Assembly (NCBI GenBank): GCA_964036665.1
Contig: OZ038531.1
Coordinates: forward strand, 21,554,324-21,618,323
Reading direction: 5' to 3'
DNA: 64,000 bases
From: Gordius sp. MW1
Taxonomy: Eukaryota; Nematomorpha; Gordioida; Gordea; Gordiidae
Shown: piece after piece, positions 10,349 through 55,175 of the stretch
How positions within the stretch are numbered: position 1 is the stretch's first letter
Layout of the letters: every line of letters starts with the position of its first letter
Notes under the pieces: model-generated
Seen by the model: the letters and a program-made list of their open reading frames with translations, nothing else
What the model was told of the DNA's origin: nothing
The model's database searches: none
Position numbers and translations under genes: made by a program

Positions 10349-12465
10349 TCAGTTATTGGGTCCCAGATTCGTGGGGTTTGTTTTGATAAGCTTCTTCCAT
10401 CTTGACCGGGTGAGTGCCATGTCTTGATTAATCTCTTTAGGTTTCATAACTTTATCGACTTGCCCTTTCCACGTAACACGGGGTCGTCCTCTTCCTCTTT
10501 TCCCCGGTACCTCCATGTCCAGTACTTTTCGATTTACGTCATCCGTGTCCCTTCTTAGTATATGCCCATACCACCTTAGCCGATTTTCGTTAATCATGTC
10601 CGCCATAGGTTGAATACCCATTTTTGTCATGAGAAAGTCATTTGTCATATGGTCGAGCTTAGTATACCCCAAACTCCACCGTATCATTCTCATCTCTGTG
10701 GCTTGTAATACTTGCCTTCCGTGGTGTTTAGTGCCCATGTTTCACTTCCATATAGTAACACCGGTCTTACGATGGATTTGTAAGCTTTGCTCTTCAACCA
10801 TATTGGCATTTTCTTGTCGCACATTACACCGGATATACTTCGCCATTTAAGCCATCCTTTTTGGATCCGAGCATTGACTTCTGTTGTGCAACCTCCCTCT
10901 TGATGTAGCATCGAGCCGAGGTATGTAAACCTGTCTACTTTGGGGTACTTTAGCTGGTCAACCAGCGATGGGGTGCTTGTACCGTTCATTTCCATGTATA
11001 CCGTTTTTCGATCGTTGACCTTTAAACCATATCCAGCTAAGCGCTTCGACCTTTCGGCTTCTTCGAATACTTTGTCCCTTGTTTCCTCGCATAGTACTAT
11101 ATCATCGGCATATAGCATACACCATGGCGATGGCTTTTGAATGTCCATCGTTATCGTGTCTATAATTATATTAAATAAAAAGGGACTTAAAGCAGATCCT
11201 TGATGTATTCCAATTTTAACCCGAAAAGATTTAGAGTCTCCAACTGTCGTCCTAACGCAAGAGTTTGAGGCTTCATAAATATTTTTCATAAGCCGTATAT
11301 ATGCGTCAGGAATATTTTGTTTTCTCAGGCACCACCATATTAAATCGCGGGGGACCGTGTCATAAGCTTTCTCCAAGTCGATAAAGACCATATGTAGGTC
11401 TTTCCTCTTTTCACCATACTTATCCATTATTTGTCTTAGTGCGAAGATTGGGTCGATTGTGGATTTGCCGGCCACAAATCCGAATTGATTCGCCGATATT
11501 TCCACCTCGTTTTTCAGCCTTGTTACTAAGATCCTTTCCATAAGCTTCAAGGAGTGGCAAGTTAGCTTGATACCTCTGTAATTGCCACAGTCTTGAGGGT
11601 CTCCTTTGCCTTTAAATAAGGGTATAATCGTGCTTGCTCTCCATTGATTAGGAATTCGCTCTTCTACCAATATCTTGTTAAGAAGGTTCGTCATGGTGGT
11701 GACTCCTTCTTCACGACATCCGAGCAATGCTTCTATAGGGATTCCATCTGGGCCATTTGCTTTTCTTTTTTGCATCTTGTTGATTTGTGTCCTAACTTCA
11801 TCCTCCTGAAAGAGTTCGACCAAACTTATATTCGGCTCAATTTTGGGAAGGGAATCCTTGTCATTTGCAATATTCATAAGTTTCTTAAAATATCCTTTCC
11901 ACCTTTCCATCACTTCTTTTGGCTTGAATAAGGTTTGACCCTTCTCGTTTTTGACTATTTTAAGAACTCCGACATCGCGACTTTTCTTCTCCCTTATCTT
12001 GGCCAATTTGTACATAAGCTTATCGCCCCCTTTATGATCCAGTTTGTTTGCCATCTCGGTGTAGGCGGCATTCTTCGCTATTGCAACGGCCTTTTTTGCG
12101 GCCCTCTTTGCGTCCCTATACTCTTGATAATCCTCCGACTTTTTTGATTTATGCCACCGTCTATATAGATTTTTCTTTCTTTCGATGAAATCCCTAACCG
12201 ATTTATCCCACCACCATAGTTCCCTATTCATAGCTTTGCCTCCTTTGGTCTGTCCTAGAACATGAATCGCTGTTTCCTTAAGGTCCTTAGATAGCGTCTC
12301 CCAATCGTCGTCTACGTCTCTTTGCAACTTCCTTGCACCCAAGAGTGAGGAGGCTTTTTGATGATATTTTTCGCTTGTCGACGTATCGTTCAGCCCTTCA
12401 TCGAATTCGAGGTTCATAGACCTTTCTTCTTTCGGTAAATACTCTTCTATCAAGATCCATAACAA
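10349..12465 (-). pseudogene. RTE reverse transcriptase region
   Basis: An open frame of 591 codons (12465-10690) carries the palm motifs: ANGPDGIPIEAL, NYRGIKLTCHSLKLMERIL, FIDLEKAYDTVPRDLIW, GIHQGSALSPFLFN and MLYADDIVL (the YADD box), then VLLYGSETWAL. The C-terminal part (RLRWYGHILRR, GKRGRGRPRVTW) continues in a different frame at 10738-10349, so one frameshift separates them. It copies LINE RNA at a nicked target. The start given to the long frame is arbitrary; it continues the endonuclease frame after another shift. Confidence 0.85.
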
Positions 12466-22453: not shown

Positions 22454-25400
22454 TTAATTTCTAAGTGCTATGGAGTATACAATATTTTTGGTTACACCGT
22501 CTTTAGCCAAGACAAACAAACTGGATGGTTTACCCACGCGAGAACATGCCACATATAGTTGTCCGTGGGAAAAGCATGGTGTGCTCAAATCTAAGCCACA
22601 AATAGACATTGTTTGGCCCTGGGCTTTATTAATTGTCATTGCGAAAGCTAATCTAATCGGAAATTGAATGCGTTTGAATTGAATGGGTACATCTGAGGGA
22701 AGAATAGGAATTCGTGGCAGCAATTAGTGACTTCTATAGAGTTTTGTAATAATTTTTTGATTACTAATCGTGTGCCATTGCAAAGCCGTGGTGGGTTTAG
22801 GTTACGAAGTAAAATTACAGGAGATCCGACCTTTAGCTGTAAATGATGCGGTGGCATTGGCAAATCCAAAGAATTCAAAAACTCAATCGGATAATTTACA
22901 ACTTCGTTGGCATCACATACTGTATCGACAGATTTGTATGATATTAAGTCACCTGGCAACAGCTGTTGTATCTTGGAATTTAAATCATTGACGTCCACAT
23001 TTTTTGCTGCTAATATTGCTATTTCTGCCAGCCAATCAAGATTGTTGTATTCTGTGTATAGATTTGGAAATACATGGTCAATGAAAGCAGTTTGCGTCTC
23101 TATAATTGTGCAAAAAACCGATGGTAATTTCATGCATTCAGTATTTTCATGTAAAGCACATTTTCCATCACCAATATTCAACAGTTGTCTTGAAAAATTT
23201 TCAGCGGATGCATCGTTAAACATTTGAACGCGCATGTTTACTTTCAGCTGTAGTTTTACAACATAACACCAAAGTGAGGATGACTTTAAGTAGGCGTTGA
23301 TCTCATCAGCGTATGTTGAACGCGGAATAACGGGAAGTGTTTGTCGAAAATCACCTGAAAGCAGTAAAAGAGTACCGCCAAAAAGTCTGTCGTTGTTCTT
23401 TAGATCCTTCAATGTCCTGTTCAATCAAGCGAATGTTTGTGTGCCATAGTGCATTCATCCCAGATGATAACTTTACATTGTTTCAGCACTCTGGCCATGG
23501 ACGATTGTTTTTTTATGTTGCACATTGCTTTAGGGTTATTTTGAATATTAAGTGGTAGCTTAAATGCTGAATGAGCTGTTCTGCCTCCATCTAATAAAGT
23601 AGCTGAAATGCCAGATGAAGCAACGGCCAAGGCGATGCCATTTTTTGATCGTATCCCAGCAAGAATTAGCGAAATTAGAAATGTTTTGCCAGTCCCTCCC
23701 GGTGCATCCAAAAAAAAGAAACCTCCTTGTCCTTCAGAAATTGCAAGCAAAATGCGGTCGTAAATGATTTTTTGTTCATTAGTCAGTAGCGGAACATTGC
23801 GAGTAACGAATGCTGCCAATTCTATAGTATTGTATTGTAGTTCACGATTCATATCAGTATTGAGTAAATCGGATGCATTTCGATTTGGTGACCGCATACC
23901 GAAATGGCTGATGTTTAAATTGGCGATGACAATGCAAAGATCCTTAATAACTATCAATGCTTCATTGTACATGGAGTCGGTGAATGGTATCGTTAGATCG
24001 TTGCTCATATGACGATATCGATGCAATATATCATCCGTCATAGAATCTTTGTGATTATCCCACAACGTATGTGCTCGGACAGGAAAACATGTAGTCAACA
24101 CTATGGCGAAGAGTAGACGAATTTGCGCTCCTGTACAGTTTAATGATGCTTCAGTAAGCATACTGTCCCAATGATTGTCGTCTTCTAGCAATCCTAATGC
24201 AAGGCATGCATCTTTATAGGTTGGATACTGTTGTCCATTTACTTTACGGATATCATGAAAAGACAAAGGGCCGGTGACATTAACCAACAACAGGCGCAGA
24301 TAAAAGCACTCAGTCTGTCTTGGATTGACTGTATATACACGACCTAAATTGTTTGATTTAAATAAACCGGGGCATGCATCAACTTGTGTGCCTTGCTTGC
24401 GCGGCATCCATTTTCTCGATTGCGTCCACGTAAAATAGCGCGGTACTTCTGAATAAAGTAGTGTTCGTGCGAAGGCACCAAAAGCATCGGAAGAATTCCA
24501 CAAAGCAAAAAAAAGCTGTTGTGGTGTTTGGTGGATTTATTGAACGATCAAAAGCCGTCTCGTTTGTGAAAAAAACGCGTTGGCCGTTTTCAAGATGAAC
24601 AGCTAAACGGATAACTGCTGGATGACGTTCATGAATTGGAAACCCGAAGATTCGTCAAATAGCTTCATTGGAGCTGATGTATCGTCCAATTTGGTAGTTG
24701 GTGATTTCATCACTGTCATTCAATGGCGTAGCATTCACATTGGTATTTTCAACTCTAAATACAGCCATATCACTTCCTTTATTAATATATTTGCAAATGT
24801 ATTTTATGCTTTTGACCGAATTGCAGAACTCAACTTTAATATGAGCATTGAATGTTTTACAGAGGAGAGATGAGTTTGGTACGACCCAACGATTGTCGAT
24901 GTTAATGTCTGCGTTACTGATAGTTTTACTAAATAATTGTCCGCCATCATCGGTACTTCTTCGACAATATATAGGATATCCGTCCCCATGTGTGATCGTA
25001 TCGTTGGTGAAATTTTTAGGAAAACGTTTTGTACACTTTCCATCTAACATGCAAGGCGATGAAGGATTTAAAGCACCGCATGGGCCATGAATCATATTTT
25101 TGGTGACGATATCAAACAATAATTGATCAGTAGAAGGATTTGGTATTTCTGCGGATACTAAACTATCTATGTCTTCTGGGCGTATTTTGTCAATGAACCA
25201 AATCAGAATAGGTGCATGAGGTAATCCACGCTTTTGCCACTCAAATACATCCAACAACGTGCGGCGCCAAATATGTGTAATTTTGTAATAAAATTAACGA
25301 AAGACCTTAATTTTTGTTTAAACACACGGACTATTATGTCATGACGATGTATTGCATTTTGCCCTGGTAAGAGGAACGATGTAATTTCCTGCCATTTTGG

Positions 25401-38611: not shown

Positions 38612-40889
38612 TTTCTTATGAGACTCTTTAATTGAAGCCATTAACTCATTTCCCCTAGATTCTGCAGCTGGCCTAGACGGAATCCGCCCTATATATCTCC
38701 AAGATTTACTTAAAATGAATAACCTTAACTCAACATGCCTCTTAAAGGCCATAACATCTTTATGCAACCTTATTGTTAATGGGAACATACCTTATGAAAT
38801 AATACCTATTCTGTTTGGCGCCAAATTGATAGCGATTAAGAAGCCAGATAATTCCCTAAGACCTATCGCTATTGGCGGAGTATTTAGGAGGATTATTTCG
38901 AAAATAATATGCAATAAAATTAAACCGATTCTTTCCATCAACCTAAGTCCACACCAATTAGGTTTTGGAATAAAGGGAGGCTGCGAAGCTGCTAGTCATG
39001 CCGCTAGGCTAGCCCTCGAATTCATACCATCGGACCATTGCATGGTCAAATTAGACTTTGCTAACGCTTTCAATTGCATTCGTAGAGACGTCCTTATTAA
39101 AAATTTTCTCGAGGATTTTCCAGAGTTCCATAACTACATCCTATTAAGTTATGGCTCAACATCCTTTTTAAGATTTGGGGATTTTACAGTTAAATCAACT
39201 GAAGGTATCCAACAGGGTGACCCATTGGGTCCGCCATTATTTTGCTTAGGTATTCAAAGTTTAGTAGAAAAAATATCGCACGAATGCGACCTATCATTAA
39301 ATATATGGTACTTGGACGATGCCACCCTTTGTGGCCATCCTCGCGAAGTTTTTAAAGCTATCAAAATTATAAAAGAATTCGAACCAATTTTAAAACTTAG
39401 ACTAAATGAGACCAAATGTGAGATCTTTCAACCCCCTGACTACACATTATATCCCCACGTTACCCCTTTTTTAGCAATCAAGAAAGACGCTATGTGCCAC
39501 CTTGGATCGCCCATAGGCGGTAGAGTTGGACTCGCTACTTATTTGGAGAAAAATCTTTCTATTTTAAAGTCAAAATTAGATCTCTTAAAGTGTCTGCCTT
39601 CACACCACGCTTTTTACATAATAAAAAACTTTTTTAATATTTCAAAGATTCAGCACTGTTTTCGCTCTTCAAGTGCTTTTTTACACTCGGAAATTTTAAA
39701 CCTCTTCGAACAAAATATTAAATCTATTTTACAATCTATTTTAAATATTAAATTTAATACTCATAGCTGGTTACAAGCTTCCCTACCAACCAAATCGGGT
39801 GGTTTAGGGATTCGCTCACCGGCCTCAATATCTCTAGTCTCCTTTATTTCATCTTATAAATCCGTACAAGATACCATTTTTAAGTTGTATCCGGTTAAAG
39901 AAGACCCGCTTCTACCCGTTGCTTTAGCTACTTGGGAAAACAACACCAATTCCGAAACACCTTTGCCACAAACCTCACGACAAAGAGATTGGGATGCCGG
40001 ACTTGTGTCGCACTCCGTTGATTATCTAATTTCGAGTAGCGATGCAAGTCAGTGTTCTAATTTAAGGTCGTTTTTGTTTGATGGCTCAGGTCACGAATGG
40101 CTAGAGGCCTACCCAAGCTGTCTCACCGGGATGATGCTGGCGGACTCGGAGCTTTCGTACTCCATAGCACTCCGGCTAGGGGTGAAATTTTCGAAGCCAT
40201 TTACTTGCCGAAATTGCAGCATACTCGTAGACGAACAAGCCAGGCATCCCTTACACTGCCTGGCAAACAAATTCAAATATGCTAGACACAATAAGGCCAA
40301 CGCCTTAATTCAAAGTGCCCTGAAGAGAGCAAAGATTCCATCCATCTTGGAGCCATCGGACCCCGCCTTGGAGGGACGTATGCGTCCTGATGGATCTTCT
40401 TTAGTCCCATGGAGCATTCACCTTAAATGGGACTTCACATGTATTGACCTATTTGCCCCCTCTAACTGCAACAATGATTCTTTAGCTGTTGCAGAGGGGC
40501 GGAAAACCAATAAATACAAAGCCCTATTATCCTCAAATATTTTTATTCCATTGGTTTCTTCGTGTTCAGGCACCTTTGGCAAACAGGCCTTAGCTTTTTT
40601 TAAAGAGGTTGGAAGACGTTCTCCCCCGTCTAAACATTCGGTACCCTTTTTACTAAAACAAAGACTTGGTATTCTTATAGCCAAGTACAACTTTAAATCG
40701 TTCGCGGATTCTTGGCCAATTTTGGAAGATCCCCTCGATGATGATATATCCGAATAGTGTATTATTTTATTCGGCGCATTTTGCCTTTTATATTTCATGT
40801 ATTTATATTATATTACTGTCAGTGGATTTTTAACAAATAAACTTTAAAAAAAAAAAAAAAAAAAATTTCTTATGAGACTCTTTAATTGA
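38612..40889 (+). mobile_element. R2-like LINE, 5'-truncated, with 24-base target duplication
   Basis: Identical 24-base direct repeats lie at 38612-38635 and 40866-40889 (starting tttcttatgagactc), the second directly after a poly(A) run (about 40845-40865). The insert therefore spans 38636-40865 and starts inside the reverse transcriptase, as expected for target-primed insertion that stopped early. A shorter relic is at 1906-2258 and a related, longer copy begins at 62.6 kb. Confidence 0.95.
38636..40757 (+). CDS. R2-like LINE protein, 5'-truncated
   Basis: The frame is open from the insertion junction to the stop at 40757; its first Met is at 38715 (680 codons). Reverse transcriptase: SAAGLDGIRPIYLQDL, KPDNSLRPIAIGG, QLGFGIKGGCEAASHA, VKLDFANAFNCIRRD, EGIQQGDPLGPPLFCLGI and IWYLDDATLCG (the YxDD box). 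Then a CRNC...HPLHC Cys-His motif and a restriction-like nuclease: RPDG, D 14 residues later in LKWDFTCID, and RKTNKY, the PD...D...K-type set known from R2/CRE-class LINEs. The N-terminal zinc finger and the start of the RT are missing, so the insert is inactive although its frame is unbroken, which suggests recent insertion. Confidence 0.85.
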
Positions 40890-44446: not shown

Positions 44447-47400
44447 ATGGCGCTGGTCAAAATAGAAGAATTCACAGATCAAGTAGACATAGAAGATTGG
44501 CTGTTAGTTTTGGAGAATGCCATGGAAATTAAAGAAGTCGCGCCGGAGAACAAGAAGAAATATCTCATAACATTCATTGGCCTTCCTACCCTGAAAAAAT
44601 TAAAGCTTAAGGTATATCCGAAACTTATTAATAACTGTAGTTTTGATAAATTAGTATTTAATTTAAAATTATTATTTAAGAGTAAAAATTCTATTTTTTT
44701 TTCGAGACTAAGTTTTTTAAGATGTAAAAGAGGTACAGATTCAATTGAGGAGTATGCTCAAAAACTTAAGGGGTTAATAACAAAATGCAATTATGATGAT
44801 GAAGATGAAATGTTAAGGGATGGGTTCTTATTGAATTTAGACAATAGCAGAGTAGAAAATGAAATCAGGATCAGGTTTCCAGAAGGTAAAGATGGAGATG
44901 AAAAGCTAAAATTCAAAACTGTATATGAATTAGCTATAAGTTATGAAAGAGCAAGGGATGAAGTAGAGGATAAGGTCATACATAATGATATTAATAAAAT
45001 TGTAAAAGGTCAAAATAATAACTATAGTGAGCTGATATGTTTTAATTGTAAGAAACAAGGTCATATAGCTAGGTTTTGTCATTTAAATAAAAATAATTCT
45101 TATTATAAATTTAAGAATTTCAATAAGGAAATGAATGGGAATTATTTAAATAGAGGAAATGATAACAATTACATTAGATGTATTAAAACTTATAAAATCA
45201 ATAGACCTTTGGTTAGAGCAATATTAAATGGGAAACCTTATAATTTTGAGTTTGATACAGCTGCTCAAGCTACAGTAATAGATAAGCAGACTTGGATAGA
45301 GATAGGTCAGCCCGGGTTAACAGAATGTCCTAGCATATTAGGTTATGGAAATTATAATATCAAAACTTTAGGTAGGTGTTTAGTTAAAGGGCAAATCAAT
45401 GATAAATGTTTTGACATCTATGTGATAGTAGTCAATGAAGGTGATTTAATATTAGGGTTGCCTGAAATTTTAAAATTTGGATTTGAACTGCCAAAAAATA
45501 TTTATATTCGACAAATTAAGTTAGAAAATTTGATTGATCAATTTCCCAAAGTATTTTCAGAGAAATTGGGCGTAGTAAACAATTTTTTGGTAGATTTACA
45601 TTTAAAAACCCCTTATAGGCCTATAAGCTTGCCCCCACGTAGGGTACCTTTTCCAATGAGGGAGGCCATTGAAAAAGAGATTAAAAGATTATTGGAAGAA
45701 GATGTAATCGAAAAGGTTGATTCAAACACTGCAATTCAATGGTGCACACCTACCGTAAACCGTTATAAGAAAGATAAATCAATCAGGATATGTGGACACT
45801 TCAAAGTCACATTAAATGATTATTTGTACGATGTTGGGGATACGTTGCCTACTTTTGAAGATGTTACAGCAAAACTGATTGGAGGCAATAAATTTACCGT
45901 CATCGATTTAAAAGACGCATTCTTGCAGTTGAAAATGTCTGAACGGAGTGCACGGTTACTTACAATTGCAACACACTTAGGATTATATCGTTATCGCAGA
46001 CTACCATTTGGAATCAAGGTTGCCCCTTTATCAAAGGTATATAAGCAACCTTTTATATGGAATTCCCAACACGGCAGTGTTTATAGATGACATTATAATA
46101 ACGGGAATAAATGACGAACAACATGTGTCAAATATTAAAGAAGTATTAAAACGTTTTGAAGAAGTAGGGATAACTACAACCCCGAGTAAAATAAAGTTCC
46201 TTCAAGATTCCGTTGTCTACTTAGGTCATAAAATTAGTTCTAAAGGCATTCAACCTACGGAAGAGAAAATTTTGGCCTTAAGGGACTGCAAAAGACCAAC
46301 AAACAAGTCTGAACTCAAAGGATTTTTAGGGTTATTGAATTATGTAGGAAGATTTATACCGATGCTTCAACCACAATGCGTCACATTACACAACCTTCTA
46401 AAAAAGGACTCTAAATAAGAATGGGGAATAGAGGAAGAAAAATGTTTTGATAAATTAAAGACCCTAATATCAAAAGAAGATAGTGTGGTTCCTTATTCAT
46501 TAAATAAACCAATAGTTTTATACACAGATGCATGTGATACAGGACTGGGGGCGGTACTTATGCACGTGGAGCCTGATGGGAAAGAAAAGCCCATAGCGTA
46601 TGCATCAAGAGTTTTAATTCCGGCAGAAGAATATTCCACTATTGATAAAGAAGCTTTAGGTATCATATATGCTGTTAATAAACTCCATCAATACCTATAT
46701 GGGAGAACATTCGTATTGAGAACAGATCACCGACCTTTACAATATATATTTGGTCGCCAGGGACATCATCACAATTGCAAACTTGCGATTACAAAGATGG
46801 GGTACAAAATTAATGGCATACGATTTTAAAGTTGAGTATATATCTGGTGATAGGAACCAAATAGCAGATTCATTATCGCGGTTACCTACCCTTGTAGATG
46901 TTAGTGAAGACATTCACATACACATGATTGAAGATTTAGAATTTGATAGGAAGACGTTGGTGGAAGGAACAAGGAGGGATGCAAGATTAAATTCTGTTAT
47001 TGATATGATCCGTTGCAATTGGAGCAAACCTGCTAACGATGCAACTATTCGTAAGTTATTTTACCCAAAGAAAAATGAATTATCCGTTGAAAATAATTTA
47101 CTTTACTGGCGAAATCGGTTAGTGGTTCCAGAAAATTTAAAGCAAGCTGTGCTCGAGAATCTGCACACCGGACATCCGAGGATATCGGGCATGATTGACC
47201 TAGCAAACTTTTATTGTTGGTGGCCAAATATTAACGATGATATTGAAAACTTTGTTCACAGGTGTCAAAGCTGCCAACAAACTCGACCGAATATGGCCGA
47301 ATCTCCCTTATATTTATGGCCAACTACGGAGGAGCCAATGGACCGTGTACATATCGATTTGGCTGGTCCAGTTAACCACAAATATTGGCTAGTATTAGTA

Positions 47401-48458: not shown

Positions 48459-49412
48459 ATGATCACAGTTAGTGCAATATGTTTCGGATCTGGACCTTTT
48501 TGGGCCCTAGTGCTGTTTACTTTAAATTATATGTGCGTCCTTAAGGACAAATTAAATACCTATGCCTTTTGTACACTTGGCCTATACGTATTGTTAACAA
48601 ATTTAGTCGTTTTAGAGTGCCCAGATTATCCAGTAAGATTGTTAAACACAATTTATGTTGTGATAGGTCAATGTTAGATCTCTAAATCTAGGGCTTCTAT
48701 TTGCTCTGGGTTTCAGTATTGCTCTCCTTTCCACCATTTACACCTATTTCGGTGTGTACATCATCATCTTATCATCATTCCATTTTTCAGAATATTTTGT
48801 TACCAAATTAATCAAACCAAAAGAAGCAAACACCAACTCATTCCTCATAAACCACAGCAAAGAGTACACCATAGCCGTCATAGCCAGTGTAATAGAATAC
48901 ATCTTAGAAGCACATTTTACTCCAGGTATATAAAGTTTGGGCCCCTTTGATATTTTAAACAAGGCTTAAAGACTCATTGGTACATTAGTGTTGTGGGTCT
49001 AACCCTATGTGTGTTTGGGGATGTGGTGAGAAAATTGGCAATGCTCACAGCAGGCCAAAATTTTGATCATATGGTTCAATATTCAAAAAAGTCTGGACAT
49101 ACATTGGTAACCAATGGAATTTATGCTGTGTGCAGGCACCCAGCCTACGCTGGATGGTTCTTTTGGTGCATTGGAACCCAAGTATTTAAATGCTTTGATA
49201 ATAATTTTACTTTATTTAAACATCAGATGGTAATGTGCAACCCAATTTGTTTTTTTGCCTACATAATTGCTGCTTGGAAATTTTTTAATGAAAGAATTTA
49301 CAATGAAGAATTAAGTTTGATAGACTTTTTTCAAGAGGATTACCTGCTATACAAAGAAAATACATGTTCAGGCATTCCATTTATTAAAGGTTTCAACATT
49401 AAACAAAGCTAG
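48459..49412 (+). CDS. ICMT: Isoprenylcysteine carboxyl methyltransferase (4 exons)
   Basis: It methylates the prenylated C-terminal Cys of CAAX proteins (Ras and Rho types, lamins) in the ER membrane, using S-adenosylmethionine. Exons: 48459-48632, 48667-48925, 48964-49181 and 49227-49412, giving 278 residues, close to the family's usual ~284. Introns are 34, 38 and 45 bases, all GT-AG; phases join in frame. Seen: several hydrophobic N-terminal segments, then FHFSEYFVTKLI, SFLINHSKEYT, GDVVRKLAMLTAGQNF, HTLVTNGIYAVCRHPAYAGW (the catalytic RHP-x-Y core), MCNPICFFAYI and the C-terminal GIPFIKG. The third intron is a multiple of three without a stop, so retention would only add 15 residues. Start: first Met in frame, fits the family. 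A gypsy LTR lies 157 bases upstream. It converges with the OTU gene. Confidence 0.93.
48633..48666 (+). other. 34-base intron of ICMT
   Basis: gtaagattg...gtgatag. Removing it joins CPDYP to VNVRSLNLGLL, which fits the family at this point; reading through gives a stop at once. Confidence 0.9.
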
Positions 49413-49532
49413 CACAATACAAAAGCACAACACTTAATTACAATTATACATTGTTTAATTATCAGATTGTAAATCAATTTTGCTTATAATAAATTTTTTA
49501 TGTGCACACGTATAATTTTTTTTAAACATTCA

Positions 49533-52500
49533 TTAATTGGTAAAATCATCTTTACTGAAATTATTATTAACTCTGAAATTTGTAGTTTTCTTCTTTTTAA
49601 GCTTGAACATAGAGGCATTTGTCATTAATTCAGGATGTTGTTCTTTGTAATTTTCTATATTGTAAACAGGATACTTTGACCTAAACATATATTTTTTAAA
49701 CAAATTTAAATATATTAAATGTACCTTAAATTTGGGCTACATATTTCTTTCCCATCAATTAGAGTAGTTGAATTGCAAATATTTTTGGGATCAGGAGGAT
49801 TCAAAGACCTGCTCATAATTTGGCTAAAACTTGTCTTTGGACATGGACTCTTAGTAGGCATTTCATCATTTAAGGCCATTTGATCCAATTGCTTATTTAA
49901 TTCAGCTCCCTATATTATATAGTTAATCTATCGCAAAAGCTTACATTTAAGTATCCATGAAACTTTAAAGCATCATTTAGGGCATAATTGGGTGATTGTG
50001 GGGGCGAATTGGTAGTTTTGACATCTTTTTAAACAAAATTGTTATATATTTATCATCTCTATATGTATATTTTTTTATTTTTACAAGGTTGTTAAAAATG
50101 AAAAGTTTAGACAAAAAAAACATAAAACCATAGGTTAATTTATCTCCCGACTGCTTTGAATGTTTGGCTGGTAGTGAATTATCATAGGATAAGTTTTCTG
50201 GATTATTAGTGACAAAGATAAGAGGGACCCAAGTTGTTCCAGGTGGAGGTGGAGGTAGCACAGATGGGTAAACATCAAATGGAAGATGTGCGCCATGATG
50301 GTACATACCATTAACGTTCATCACATGACTCAACAAATTATGGTCTTGCCTAGATTTTTCAAAATTATTCGGCACACTATCAATTAATTGTCTCGTATCC
50401 GCCGCATTCATATTGACTGGGACGGCCGCGTTGTTATTAATACTTTGAGGAGGAAATAAAGCCTGCGAGTTTGTTGGGTGCTGCGCGTGATAAGTCGGTA
50501 CGTTGGAATTGATTAAATGGTTATTAAACATCATCTGTTTGACGGTGGCGAAGTTGTAGCTTGGGGTAATGTGTTGATGATGATGAGGAGAGAAGTACAT
50601 AGAGGGTGGTGGTGGCATAAGATGATAATGTGGTTCTACTGAATGGTAAGCTAGGTCTGGAGTAGTGTTTAAACCAATGGGCAGGCTTTCGTTTTGTTTT
50701 CTCCCCTTAGACGACCCATAATTAAGGGAGTCATGCGGAGCTTCCTTCGTTCCGGGTGAAGTGTGATTCAAAGTAGGTGCATGATCGTTTACCACCCAAT
50801 TACCATTACTATATGCGGCGTTATGATTTGGAGTGACTATTACGTGCCCGTGGCTTTTAGAGATTCCATTGCCGTGTGGCTCATCGTTGTACGGTGGTAT
50901 TTTGGTGTTGTTGATACTGGAAATACGAATAATGCCGCTAGCCTTTTCATCGTGTAAATTCGGTCGAAATATGTTTTCGACGTCATTCTTTGCCTCGTTA
51001 AGAGCGTATTTTGGGAAAATTTCTACCTTATGTTTAGCTAATAAATAATTACAAAATAAAATATTGTCCAATATGTGTAAAGGTAATTTAGTCGCTTTTA
51101 CTTGACGCATTTTCATCAAAATTATCCTATTATAAAAAAAGAAATTTTAATCATCTCACAAAATGGCTAAATTACCAAGGGTGCCGATAAAGAAAATACT
51201 TTTCCAACTTCATTCATGTAAATATCTTAAAATTTTATTCATTATGCCATCCCTTAAAATGTGTTACCTTTTTCGGAATTATCGCAAAAATTATTCGCGT
51301 AATTGAAACGTTCTGGGCTTAATTTAATATCACTAAATCAATTTTTAATATTTATTTTTATAATATACTTAAGAGTTGCGTATGGTAATTCCTGAGAATT
51401 TATGCAATTATGTAATGTATCATACATTGCCCCTTCAGGCTATATAATTAAAATAAAAAAATCTAAGGCACGGTCACCAATTGAAATAAATAAACTCATT
51501 AAAATTTTTATTGTGTTGTATTAATTGTAACCAAAGGGCTTATAAAATTTAACCCACCTTGAATCTTGACTTTTTATGGTTAAGTTTTTTGTGGTTTGAC
51601 TTGTTAGAATTGAACGAAACTTCATTGAAAAAGTTGCTCTGTATTTTGCCCCCAAATTTTCCGTAAAAATTATTTGGCGACAATATTCCCATATGTCCAG
51701 GAAATGGATACAACTGCTCGACCTTCACTTCAAACCTTGGAATTTTAAAATTTTGTTTATTAAGCCATAAACTATATACTTTTGCCCCAAATCTTCCACA
51801 AATACCACAACTTCCTTGTTCCCCCCTTTAATATGCTGAATGTGTGCATTGTAAAAATGGTCCAAAATTTGGGCGTTTTTATTGCTGCAAAAGAAGTTGG
51901 TTGGTTTCAGCTTTACCAAACACACGTCTCCCGGGGCATATTGGTAATTTACGACGGCAGACAAGTTAATCTTTTGTTCATCTTTTTTTTTAATCAACAC
52001 ACTTTATAAACTCGACACTTTATAAAATACCCTTTTTAGCCTCGAACCAGGCATCGTATGCCACATTTCTAAAGATGTAGACATCTAGAGACTTCAATAT
52101 TTTAAGAGAAACGGGAATATTTTTGGCCAGTTTCTTGAGTAAGCTTTCCTATCATATTAATTTAAAAATCGTTTTAGCAAATATGTAAAATAACGCTATA
52201 CCCTTCGATTGGCTTTGTAAGAATAAGTATCATATCTAAATTTTCTTTGGATCTTATTATATTCCGGCGATGAACTGTATAGATAAAATACATTATTAAG
52301 AGCAATAATTCTAACCTCTCAGTGTATTTTTCGTATTGTTCGTCCAGACCATTACTCGTGCTATCGTTACTACTAATCTTTACTTTGTCCGAATAAGATA
52401 CGAGATCGTTGCTTACACCATCAAGTTGAGTTTCAAACTGTTTATCGTACTCAAAGTATATGCCAAAAACTCCTCTGTACAACACGTCATAGAGCATCGC

Positions 52501-55175
52501 TAAAGAGAAAAAACATTTGTTAATTTTGGCCAAATCTGCTTGCTAGGCTTGTAAAGTACGACGCATTCTTGTTTAACCAATGTTACTTACCGCTTAATCT
52601 TATGAAAAATGCATTATCGGGTATTTTTAAAGGGGTTTAAAGACATTACAGCTTTATGAAATATTTGTTAAAAAAATTTAAAACCGCATATTAATAAGTG
52701 AATCGATATTTTAGATTAGTCAAAATTTGAAACCTTTTATAATATTATGAGCCTTAGTTAGCCCCTGCCCAACATTTAAGAATTCAAATTACATAGGGCC
52801 GCCCCCATTACTATTTATTTAGTGAGGAAACCATATGTATTTTTTAGCAATTGGTCAACACAACTAACATTGGATGAAAGCAGAACTCTTGAAATAATGT
52901 TGTGGGTAAACGCAATCATAGTGATTCCAATTTGTCGTGCATAGGGTAATCTGTAAAATAGAATGTAAAATCCAATTGTAGCATTAATTCTTTTACGTAA
53001 TCATCAAAGCAGTTGTTAGTCATTTTGATAGGCATCCTCTCCGAAGGTATGTAAATTAATATATCTTTGCTATAAATCAAATTAATAAATTATGTTATTT
53101 ATGGTGAACCTGTAAATTAAAGATACAGCTATCATGTCGATTTGAGTGCCCCAACTCTAAATACATTTCATTATCAAGACATATTTATTTGGCTAGTATT
53201 ACCGCTGTCTCTTTCAAAGTTTTCACATATTTGGCGACATCCATGTCATTTATTATCTATGAAAGCAATTTATATATAAGATTAAGGCGAATAATCAATT
53301 AAAAAATTAAATTTACTATTTATACCTTGATAAATAATGACCCTTTTTTACCCTCGGATTTATTTAAGCAGCCCCTGGAAAAACCGAGAATTTTTTCGAG
53401 ACTAAAATATACCATGTTTTATTTAATTTCAATTTTTTCAAAATTATTAGCTTCAAGGAAAAATTTTGCCTATTTAGTACTGCCTAATTCAGGAGACAAA
53501 AATACCCACTTAAATATGCGCTTAAAGAGCTTCGATAAATTATAGGGCATTTTACTATAACAAATAAATTATTAATGCGTAAGCAGGATTTGATGGGGGA
53601 GGGGTAAAGAAGTGCAAAGTCTTTTTCAACCCGAAACCGATATGACCCAAATTTTTGAAAAAAAATTTAAATCCGAACCCGACCAGACCCGGAAGCATTT
53701 TAAAAGTCAACCCGAACCCGACCAAAGCGTTTCAAAAATTGGTATCCGACGCGAGAATAAGAAAAATCGCGGTGTGTAAAATTTAATTGATAAATGCGAT
53801 TTATAAAACTAATTGATTTGAATGATTTATTATAGTGATGCATATTTACAAGGGCGTAACCAGCATTGAAATCAGAGGTGGGCAATAATGATTTAAGGAG
53901 AGGCAAAATAATAATCTTAAAAAAAATTTGGATTTAGAGGGGGGCAGCCGCCCCTCTCTGCCTCCCCCTGGCTACGCTCATGTATAAATATTATAGCACA
54001 AACAATAACGGGTCGCAATTAATTTGAATTATATAGTTTTGCAGATGAACCATTTAATAAATTTAAATTTTTTTCTTTTTATGAATACATATTATGTATT
54101 TTAAATTAATAATGAGCTACCACTTCACTTTAATTAAAGACGATTTAAAAATATTTTGTTGATATATTTTACCTTTCACGAGTTAAATTTAAATTTGCGT
54201 CCACATTAAAACAATGAGATTTAAATAAACAAAAGAAAATTATAACTGAATGACTAATCTTCAATTATACATTTCGCTATTAATTAAAGCATATTAGCAT
54301 TAATTTATAAGATATGTCCCGAGTATTTTGCAATGTAAGATTCATAACCTTTGACCTGACACTATAAGTCCAACCCGACCCGAAAGTATTTTAAATTTTT
54401 CAACTCGAACCCGACCAGACACAAAGACATTACAAAATTTTCAACCCGGGTCGGGTGGGATTTTGGGTCACAGACAAAATTATTAATTAGAAGCTTTTTA
54501 ACTTCGTTTATTCAACATTAGATTAAAGGGAGGGGGGGGTAAGTCGATCCTATTTTCTCCTTAACTACGATTATTATAATTGGTGTAACAATTTATAGAT
54601 AAGAGCGTCGAACAAAGTAATTTAATAACGGGGAGAGGAAAAATGATAATGTTACAATTTTAATTGTATATTAAAATGTAGGGATAACGATCACAAAAAT
54701 TTTTTCCTTGATTATATTATGTTTATTAATTTTGTGCGCTAAACAAAACCTGTCTAAAATAGTCAAATTTTTCAAATTTACAAATCGCTCTTTCTCACAT
54801 TCAAATAAAATGCAACTTCACAGAACGGGCTCATTATATTTTTAATAAAAATTAATGTTACATGCATCATGTTAACATATAATATATTTATAAATTAAGA
54901 CATATTCTAAAGTGAGAATATACTTACTGCTTTAAATTTAGCCTCATTCGCCTCAATGAATTCGGTAACCTTGTCCCGGACATGTTGGTAGAATGATTGA
55001 GAAAAATATACCTTAAATTCAACATAAAAGGATGCCCATTTAGTGATATATCCAATAAAATATGATAATATAGAGTATGAATACTCACTTGCTCGGCTAC
55101 TGCTCGAAACAGGCAAACGGAATCTTTAGGAACATTCTTTTTGATCAATCCAACGGAAAGGAGACATTCTTCCAT
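49533..55175 (-). CDS. OTUD4: OTU deubiquitinase with Tudor domain, OTUD4/Otu type (16 exons)
   Basis: Cysteine protease expected to cleave ubiquitin chains. Exons (minus): 55175-55089, 55011-54928, 53256-53203, 53156-53110, 53069-52997, 52950-52869, 52499-52316, 52274-52202, 52148-52031, 51981-51780, 51735-51558, 51126-51102, 51037-50129, 50024-49945, 49909-49725 and 49680-49533. They total 2529 bases, 842 residues, with every junction in phase. OTU domain: KDSVCLFRAVAEQ (Asp and nucleophile Cys), SQSFYQHVRDKV, YVKTLKETASWGTQIDMIA, NNCFDDYITLCTTNWNHYDC (catalytic His), SSAFIQSMLYDVLY. Then RNVAYDAWFEAKK, a Tudor domain (APGDVCLVKL, FYNAHIQ, VFVEDLGQKFEV), and a long Pro/His/Asn-rich tail with polyproline. 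Eleven of 15 introns are 35-64 bases. OTUD4 usually has DGSC; here DSVC. Intron 2 (1671 bases) is filled with repeats. Confidence 0.9.
53257..54927. other. Large intron 2 of the OTU gene, repeat-filled
   Basis: It is the only long intron. It contains an ACCCGAC-rich repeat (about 53615-53760 and 54350-54475, inverted at the ends, hAT-like) and within it a 'gggcgtaaccagc' MITE (about 53852-53983). The frame at 53327-53545 (+) has no family motif. The size of this intron seems to come from these insertions. Confidence 0.7.

What the first reader, a model, noticed from the sequence alone, without database searches (positions are those of the whole stretch)
48633..53202. Host genes with ultra-short introns (34-64 bases)
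In the intact ICMT gene all three introns are 34, 38 and 45 bases, and in the 16-exon OTU gene eleven of fifteen are 35-64 bases (for example 35 at 49910-49944, 40 at 53070-53109, 41 at 52275-52315). All have GT-AG ends and keep the frame, and the joined 2529-base OTU frame has no internal stop. Such sizes are at or below the usual lower limit for most animals and imply a spliceosome adapted to tiny introns.
Basis: partly seen in the sequence, partly recalled or inferred. Interest (0 to 1): 0.75.

Follow-up and report, generated by a model that had tools for sequence, protein, structure and literature searches.

The report
Horsehair-worm genes with 38-base introns
This horsehair-worm genome appears to cut introns of only 34 to 49 bases out of its genes, as short as the shortest animal introns I found reported, and the tiny ones lie mostly near the front of the gene with long ones towards the back, the reverse of the usual pattern.

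Summary
Homologous proteins, aligned without length preference, recover the 38- and 45-base ICMT introns and OTU introns of 40, 46, 46 and 49 bases; the 34-, 41- and 35-base ones rest mainly on frame. In 13 genes, 103 introns pass a flank filter: 53 are 34-49 bases (mode 38), five 63-98, 45 are 107-1670; none of 123 aligned is under 34. The host is a horsehair worm (Nematomorpha). The major-spliceosome parts I searched for are present, so a specially adapted spliceosome is not shown. Equally small introns are known in Dicyema (mean 38.2 bp). New here: intron length rises from 5' to 3' within genes (24 of 28 genes positive, z 7.9), against the reported rule that first introns are longest. Eight genes whose queries were chosen beforehand repeat it (8 of 8 positive, z 4.0); seven genes measured coarsely earlier do not (z 0.5). 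In CCT5, the one gene tested, the long 3' introns hold dispersed repeats. No transcript data were available.

The parts
48459..49412 (+). ICMT (protein-S-isoprenylcysteine O-methyltransferase) gene, 4 exons, 278 codons
48633..48666 (+). ICMT intron 1, 34 bases
   Evidence: frame; 1 of 7 homologues finds it, among other introns in the same divergent stretch
48926..48963 (+). ICMT intron 2, 38 bases, phase 1
   Evidence: 7 of 7 homologues; ungapped to PDB 5v7p
49182..49226 (+). ICMT intron 3, 45 bases, phase 0; stop-free and a multiple of 3, so only homology shows it is an intron
   Evidence: 7 of 7 homologues
49536..55175 (-). OTUD4/otu homologue with OTU domain; ATG at 55175; the 3' limit is the last open frame before 49536 and is not fixed
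55012..55088 (-). OTU intron 1, 77 bases
53257..54927 (-). OTU intron 2, 1671 bases
   Evidence: right flank below the filter
53157..53202 (-). OTU intron 3, 46 bases
53070..53109 (-).
52951..52996 (-). OTU intron 5, 46 bases
52500..52868 (-). OTU intron 6, 369 bases
   Evidence: right flank below the filter
52275..52315 (-).
   Evidence: frame kept together with the 53-base intron; the guides preferred 63
52149..52201 (-). OTU intron 8, 53 bases, phase 0
   Evidence: frame only
51982..52030 (-). OTU intron 9, 49 bases
   Evidence: sequence only

Best explanation
These are ordinary U2-type spliceosomal introns of a horsehair worm that have been shortened to about the smallest size its splicing machinery accepts, mostly 34-39 bases, with a sharp lower edge at 34 in this sample. 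A standard major spliceosome removes them by intron definition, pairing a 5' and a 3' site fewer than 50 bases apart. The introns are 81% A+T, end mostly in TAG, and have a loose branch site and a loose 5' site. Longer introns appear to be short ones enlarged by dispersed repeats, and this enlargement is tolerated much more towards the 3' end of genes than near the start. Shown by sequence: position, size, lower edge, bimodality and the 5'-3' sorting; repeats in long introns for one gene only. Inferred: removal in the cell, intron definition, the help of SMU1-RED and SPF45, and repeat insertion as the cause of the long class.
For: 103 introns in 13 genes pass the flank filter and 53 are 34-49 bases, median 38. 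None of 123 aligned introns is under 34 although the aligner allowed 15; with minimum 5 the shortest stayed at 35-36 in the three genes tried. Spliced targets gave 0 introns in 3 of 3 controls. 51 of 53 short introns shift the frame or hold an in-frame stop, so the proteins need their removal. The spliced HSP60 aligns over 530 residues without a gap to a solved mitochondrial HSP60, 9l8p. The major-spliceosome parts searched for were found. 0 of 103 has a U12-type RTATCC start. In CCT5 the three long 3' introns contain fragments found at many other places in the genome.
Against: No RNA data. The guide proteins for 12 of the 13 genes were typed from recall; the checks not resting on recall are the ICMT homologues and the PDB comparisons of ICMT, HSP60 and the OTU start. 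The sample leans to chaperonins: outside them 14 of 35 introns are short, and the gene bootstrap range of the short share is 36-67%. No branch-site motif stands out: mean best score 6.24 against 6.09 (sd 0.14) in shuffles. The looser 5' site of short introns (+5 G in 9 of 53 against 19 of 45 long, Fisher p 0.007) is one of nine tests. Repeat content was tested in one gene only.
Confidence: 0.93

Rival explanations
1. The short segments are artefacts of fitting GT-AG gaps into decayed or non-coding A+T-rich DNA.
For: GT and AG are common here, and stop-free paths of 431-1430 bases can be laid through 4 kb of genomic or shuffled DNA.
Against: Proteins conserved to human align without gaps across the junctions. 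No intron under 34 appears although 15 was allowed. The lengths form a narrow peak at 34-49.
Confidence: 0.03
2. The segments are real but are removed by something other than the major spliceosome, for example the minor spliceosome or self-excision.
For: Minor-spliceosome RNAs seem present: U6atac 73.6 bits against cut-off 33; a full-length U12-like match of 51.7 bits, just under its cut-off of 53.
Against: 0 of 103 introns start with RTATCC. 5' and 3' ends follow the major-class pattern in short and long introns alike. U1 and U2 are abundant.
Confidence: 0.02
3. The spliceosome of this lineage carries specific changes that permit 34-base introns.
For: In human extracts about 50 bases between 5' site and branch site are needed, and 35 abolished assembly in one substrate (PMC6692369 passages). 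A 34-39-base intron cannot offer that.
Against: No unusual part was found among the few inspected. SPF45 copies beside the main one are partial. Very short introns exist in Dicyema. I did not compare residues of SF3B1, PRPF8 or the B-complex proteins, so this is open rather than refuted.
Confidence: 0.3
4. The 5'-3' gradient of intron length is a sampling effect of loci cut at their 5' ends or of the genes chosen.
For: Eight of 13 sequence-based loci lacked the gene start when the trend was seen, and six still do. Seven earlier coordinate-only genes show no trend, z 0.5. The CCT genes are paralogues.
Against: Adding a 9999-base first intron to all eight genes leaves z 4.2. Five genes with the start in hand at that time give z 2.9, 7 of 5000. 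7 genes outside the CCT family give z 4.4. Eight replicate genes, queries chosen before looking, are all positive, z 4.0.
Confidence: 0.15

Closest known systems
Dicyema japonicum introns (PMC6736024, passages)
   Same: Animal parasite with mean intron size 38.2 bp, the same size as the short class here
   Different: There the mean itself is 38 bp in a 67.5 Mb assembly with 5,012 predicted genes; here about half of the sampled introns are short, 45 of 103 are 107-1670 bases, the genome is 212 Mb, and the two classes are sorted along genes
Short-intron class of nematodes, the sister phylum (C. elegans mode about 47 bases, recalled)
   Same: Sharp short peak in A+T-rich introns with loose branch sites (recalled)
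   Different: About ten bases shorter here (by recall); and in C. elegans the first intron, above all in the 5' UTR, is longer than later ones (PMC2518113 abstract), the opposite of the coding-intron pattern here
Human short introns that depend on SMU1-RED or SPF45 (PMC6692369 passages; PMC8363638 abstract)
   Same: Short 5' site to branch site distance or weak pyrimidine tract; the same proteins are encoded here
   Different: Human cases are rare and longer (56-base model intron; introns shorter than 73 nts are 0.25% of human introns per PMC6692369); here they are about half of the sampled introns
Paramecium introns, about 25 bases (start of abstract of PMC5014332; 25.3 and 26.4 nt in PMC2518113 passages)
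   Same: Uniformly minimal introns (removal by intron definition recalled)
   Different: A ciliate; only very short introns with little length variation, so no gradient

Membership tests
U2-type spliceosomal introns | GT-AG (or GC-AG) ends | tested here: met
   102 of 103 GT-AG, one GC-AG; the aligner required such ends, so the test is that they were found exactly at homology breaks
U2-type spliceosomal introns | major-class rather than U12-type 5' site | tested here: met
   0 of 103 RTATCC
U2-type spliceosomal introns | major spliceosome parts in the genome | tested here: met
   U1, U2, U2AF1, U2AF2, SF1, SF3B6, SNRPA1, SNRNP70; U4, U5, U6, SF3B1 and PRPF8 not searched
U2-type spliceosomal introns | branch site and lariat | tested here: inconclusive
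   no general consensus above shuffles; lariats not testable
U2-type spliceosomal introns | removed from mRNA | not testable with these tools
   no RNA reads; inferred from protein homology
Animal ultra-short intron class (as in Dicyema) | narrow length peak under 50 bases | tested here: met
   53 of 103 at 34-49, five at 63-98
Animal ultra-short intron class (as in Dicyema) | mean intron itself about 38 bases, in a reduced genome | tested here: not met
   45 of 103 are 107-1670 bases; genome 212 Mb. So it is not filed as the dicyemid type
Host phylum Nematomorpha | perfect inverted repeats inside mitochondrial coding genes, among them nad1 and atp6 | tested here: met
   108 bases in the nad1 frame and 95 bases in the atp6 frame, both 100% (gene names by my reading of the frames; PMC6649704 abstract and passages)
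Host phylum Nematomorpha | nuclear protein closest to a nematomorph | tested here: met
   SND1: Gordionus 59% over the whole query, 1102 bits; next 932 bits at 52%; one 1226-aa Penaeus record scores 1136 bits with 50% over 79% (best 120 listed)
Host phylum Nematomorpha | 18S rRNA or species-level identity | not tested
   no eukaryote rRNA collection; species not named

The most novel reading that the evidence does not exclude
In this horsehair-worm lineage intron size is set by position: coding introns near the start codon are held at the spliceosome's minimum of about 38 bases, while downstream introns are free to grow by repeat insertion. The gene-wide length gradient is then the reverse of the rule reported for eukaryotes, that first introns are longest.
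Probability: 0.6. Interest if true: 0.72.

Novelty: new variant of a known kind. Interest (0 to 1): 0.52.

Why it matters
Human extracts need about 50 bases between the 5' splice site and the branch site (PMC6692369 passages), yet this animal's short introns are 34-49 bases in all. It offers a natural test of how small an animal spliceosome can go with what looks like an ordinary parts list. If the reversed gradient holds genome-wide, it is an exception to a reported general property of genes (PMC2518113). A lineage that keeps its first coding introns minimal lets one ask what makes introns grow or shrink by position. It also has a practical use: gene finders with a minimum intron of 40-50 bases would break these genes and could make conserved genes look absent. 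Nematomorph genomes are reported to lack many universal genes (PMC11603191 passages cite this), so that count may deserve a recheck.

Tried and rejected
(1) SPF45/RBM17 triplication as an adaptation: three loci, but one search shows one full-length gene (C8), a copy with only the last two exons (C6) and a decayed one (C7). Rejected.

(2) A branch-site consensus for short introns: TGCTTA in 5 of 53 (shuffle mean 0.3) and TTGAY in 11 of 53 (mean 4.9) are enriched, but the general site is not above shuffles. Left open.

(3) A gene predictor trained on these data invented dozens of exons in the window and was dropped.

(4) Host from the ICMT tree: unresolved, 107 of the 119 homologues plus the query. 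From COX1: no close named relative among the best 120 listed. My guess that contig C9 is bacterial was wrong; its first 10 kb is an 11-base satellite.

(5) Gradient in 7 earlier coordinate-only genes: z 0.5, no trend. Reported, not dropped.

(6) Choices in the coordinate estimates: EIF2S3 gave no scored match. Of three DDX39B copies only one was used. An EEF2 tail hit, an EEF2 sub-hit and an SMU1 hit that overlapped another in the query were left out. A 114-base excess inside one EEF2 match was counted as three introns of 38. IK, U2AF1b, SF3B6 and SNRPA1 had too few introns for the gradient test. Partial RBM17 copies were left out of the 103 and of the gradient. The ICMT 34-base intron, weakly supported, was included in the gradient. 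The first introns of CCT7 and CCT2 were picked from 13 and 17 frame-compatible possibilities that one search lists, because exon 1 then ends at the ATG and the start matches the human protein; the worst-case test does not use them.
Full report
What was claimed.

ICMT. The three segments are where stated, and the joined frame of 837 bases is open. 119 homologues were found. I aligned seven of them (P0004, P0005, P0007, P0020, P0031, P0043, P0045) to the raw DNA with a spliced aligner that requires GT/GC-AG ends, with a minimum of 15 bases and a flat intron cost. All seven place the 38-base and 45-base introns exactly. The 45-base intron is stop-free and in frame, so only homology reveals it. 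The solved ICMT 5v7p (of a beetle, as I recall) runs through both junctions without a gap. The 34-base intron sits in a divergent stretch and is placed by one of the seven, which adds two further introns there; a second homologue places a different one of 392 bases.

OTU gene. Alignment with Drosophila otu and human OTUD4 (typed from recall) shows an OTUD4-type gene that begins at 55175, upstream of the interval of the finding. The spliced start matches the OTU family and solved OTU domains such as OTUD5. Introns of 77, 46, 40, 46 and 49 bases pass the flank filter; those of 1671 and 369 are supported on one side. The tail of the gene is unconserved, so its short segments, including 49910-49944, stay unproven. 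Open frames alone are weak evidence: in ten 4-kb stretches and their shuffled copies, stop-free GT-AG paths of 431-1430 bases could be drawn.

Which animal. The assembly has 211.8 Mb in 12 contigs: eight of 21-37 Mb, one of 1.37 Mb and three small ones. Contig C12 (14,798 bases, of which I read the first 10,000) is mitochondrial. A large-subunit rRNA lies on the minus strand. By my reading of the frames, nad1 (minus) follows, then cox1, cox2, atp6, cox3, nad3, nad4L and nad4 on the plus strand; COX1 was confirmed by homologues. There are perfect inverted repeats of 108 bases in the nad1 frame and 95 bases in the atp6 frame. Such coding palindromes, in nad1 and atp6 among others, mark Nematomorpha (PMC6649704, abstract and passages), and an order with rrnL-rrnS-nad1 is that of its freshwater class (PMC10380579, passages; I did not locate rrnS). 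SND1 from this genome is 59% identical to Gordionus over its whole length (1102 bits). The next hit is at 932 bits and 52%, apart from one odd 1226-residue Penaeus record that scores 1136 bits over 79% of the query.

Genome-wide size. I read 13 genes from DNA: ICMT, OTUD4, SND1, UBE2G1, CCT2, CCT3, CCT4, CCT5, CCT6, CCT7, HSP60, RBM17 and U2AF2; guides for all but ICMT were typed from recall. Of 123 aligned introns 103 pass a filter (at least four of eight positively scoring residues on each side, no gap). 53 of the 103 are 34-49 bases, five are 63-98 and 45 are 107-1670; 33 of the 53 are 34-39. None of the 123 is under 34. Other penalties return 28 or 29 of the 29 introns in three genes, and spliced targets give none. 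The short share by gene bootstrap is 36-67%; outside chaperonins it is 14 of 35. Estimates from match coordinates in further genes give 34 of 90 at 25-55 bases.

Signals. Short introns are 81% A+T (long 73%), end in TAG in 44 of 53, and have G at +5 in 9 of 53 against 19 of 45 long introns (Fisher 0.007, one of nine tests). No branch-site motif exceeds shuffles overall, though TGCTTA and TTGAY are enriched in short ones. The U2 branch-recognition sequence GUAGUA is intact in the copy I read (L044).

Machinery. Matches to U1, U2, U2AF1 (two loci), U2AF2, SF1, PUF60, SF3B6, SNRPA1, SNRNP70, SMU1, RED and SPF45 were found; I read the DNA of U2AF2, SPF45 and one U2 only. SMU1-RED are needed in human extracts when the 5' site to branch site distance is short (PMC6692369, passages). 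SPF45 replaces U2AF on human short introns with truncated pyrimidine tracts (PMC8363638, abstract). Both are candidates here, by inference only. The extra SPF45 loci are partial copies.

The unexpected pattern. Within genes the introns grow longer from 5' to 3'. Examples: CCT5 36, 39, 39, 41, 217, 785, 1243, 1033; CCT4 36, 39, 41, 37, 37, 47, 38, 119, 43, 518, 1122. A within-gene permutation test gives z 7.1 for 13 genes and 124 introns, 0 of 5000. Eight loci lacked the gene start; putting a 9999-base first intron into all eight still gives z 4.2, and the five genes with a start in hand give z 2.9, 7 of 5000. I then read two of the missing starts. The likeliest first coding introns of CCT7 and CCT2 are 41 and 38 bases and lie directly behind the ATG; one search lists other frame-compatible starts. 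Taking these, six of seven genes with the start in hand have a first coding intron of 34-41 bases (ICMT 34, HSP60 35, U2AF2 36, UBE2G1 37, CCT2 38, CCT7 41) and one (OTUD4) of 77; those of ICMT and U2AF2 lie in weakly conserved stretches. The trend in these seven is z 4.4. In seven genes measured earlier by coordinates only there is no trend (z 0.5). For a fair repeat I chose new queries before looking. VCP, EEF2, RUVBL1 and ETF1 gave z 3.3, 0 of 3000; ATP5F1A, ATP5F1B, DDX39B and ENO1 gave z 2.5, 20 of 3000. All eight are positive, ATP5F1B barely (rho 0.11); z 4.0 together. All 28 testable genes: 24 positive, 209 introns, z 7.9, 0 of 2000. OTUD4 in the window is one of the four exceptions.

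Where long introns come from. In CCT5 each of the three long 3' introns (785, 1243, 1033 bases) holds fragments that recur elsewhere in the genome, those listed at 75-92% identity (only the best candidates were scored). This supports growth by dispersed repeats, tested in one gene only.

Against the literature. Dicyema has a mean intron of 38.2 bp (PMC6736024, passages), so the size alone is a known kind. Longer first introns are described as a general property of eukaryotes, in C. elegans too, and only four species in that survey showed shorter first introns (PMC2518113, abstract and passages). The rule is strongest for introns in the 5' untranslated region, which I cannot see; it is also stated for coding introns. 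My searches for the reverse pattern list no paper on it beyond that survey, judged from titles and abstract starts. Searches for nematomorph introns list none that appears to report their lengths, but the two nematomorph genome papers did not turn up in the library, so I do not claim that the sizes are unpublished.

Verdict. The special spliceosome is not shown. The positional sorting of short and long introns is the part worth following.

Noticed in passing
G000:C6:17675105-17675230 and C6:11840681-11840822: U6atac (73.6 bits, over the cut-off) and a full-length U12-like match (51.7 bits, cut-off 53): the minor spliceosome seems kept, unlike in C. elegans (recalled).
   Followed up: partly
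L045+L032 and L046+L035 (CCT7, CCT2 starts): In the likeliest reading exon 1 of both genes ends exactly at the ATG, and a 41- or 38-base intron follows at once.
   Followed up: partly
L015 (contig C12): Mitochondrial DNA with perfect inverted repeats in the nad1 frame (108) and the atp6 frame (95), and a tandem repeat of about 33 bases between nad1 and cox1 seen in the open frames.
   Followed up: partly
L012 (contig C9, first 10 kb): About 908 copies of an 11-base satellite GGACAACGGAC, 57% G+C where the window has 33%.
   Followed up: partly
G000, places: 22 OTU-domain matches, six with the same E-value (2.1e-4) and extent (2-97) on five contigs: an OTU domain probably rides on a dispersed element.
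   Followed up: no
G000:C6:582500-587700 (L040) and C7:15400200-15418500 (L041, L042): Partial copies of SPF45/RBM17, one with only the last two exons and a long intron, one decayed.
   Followed up: yes
G000:C5:17181198-17903191: Three DDX39B-like copies within 0.72 Mb on C5.
   Followed up: no
window 10690-12465, 22648-24503, 38715-40757, 44447-46090: Reverse transcriptase and PIF1-helicase frames: a repeat-rich stretch in which ICMT stands close behind a retroelement.
   Followed up: no
G000, places: 32 U2 snRNA matches over the cut-off, many in clusters on C3, C5 and C7, with scores from 165 down to 73 bits.
   Followed up: no
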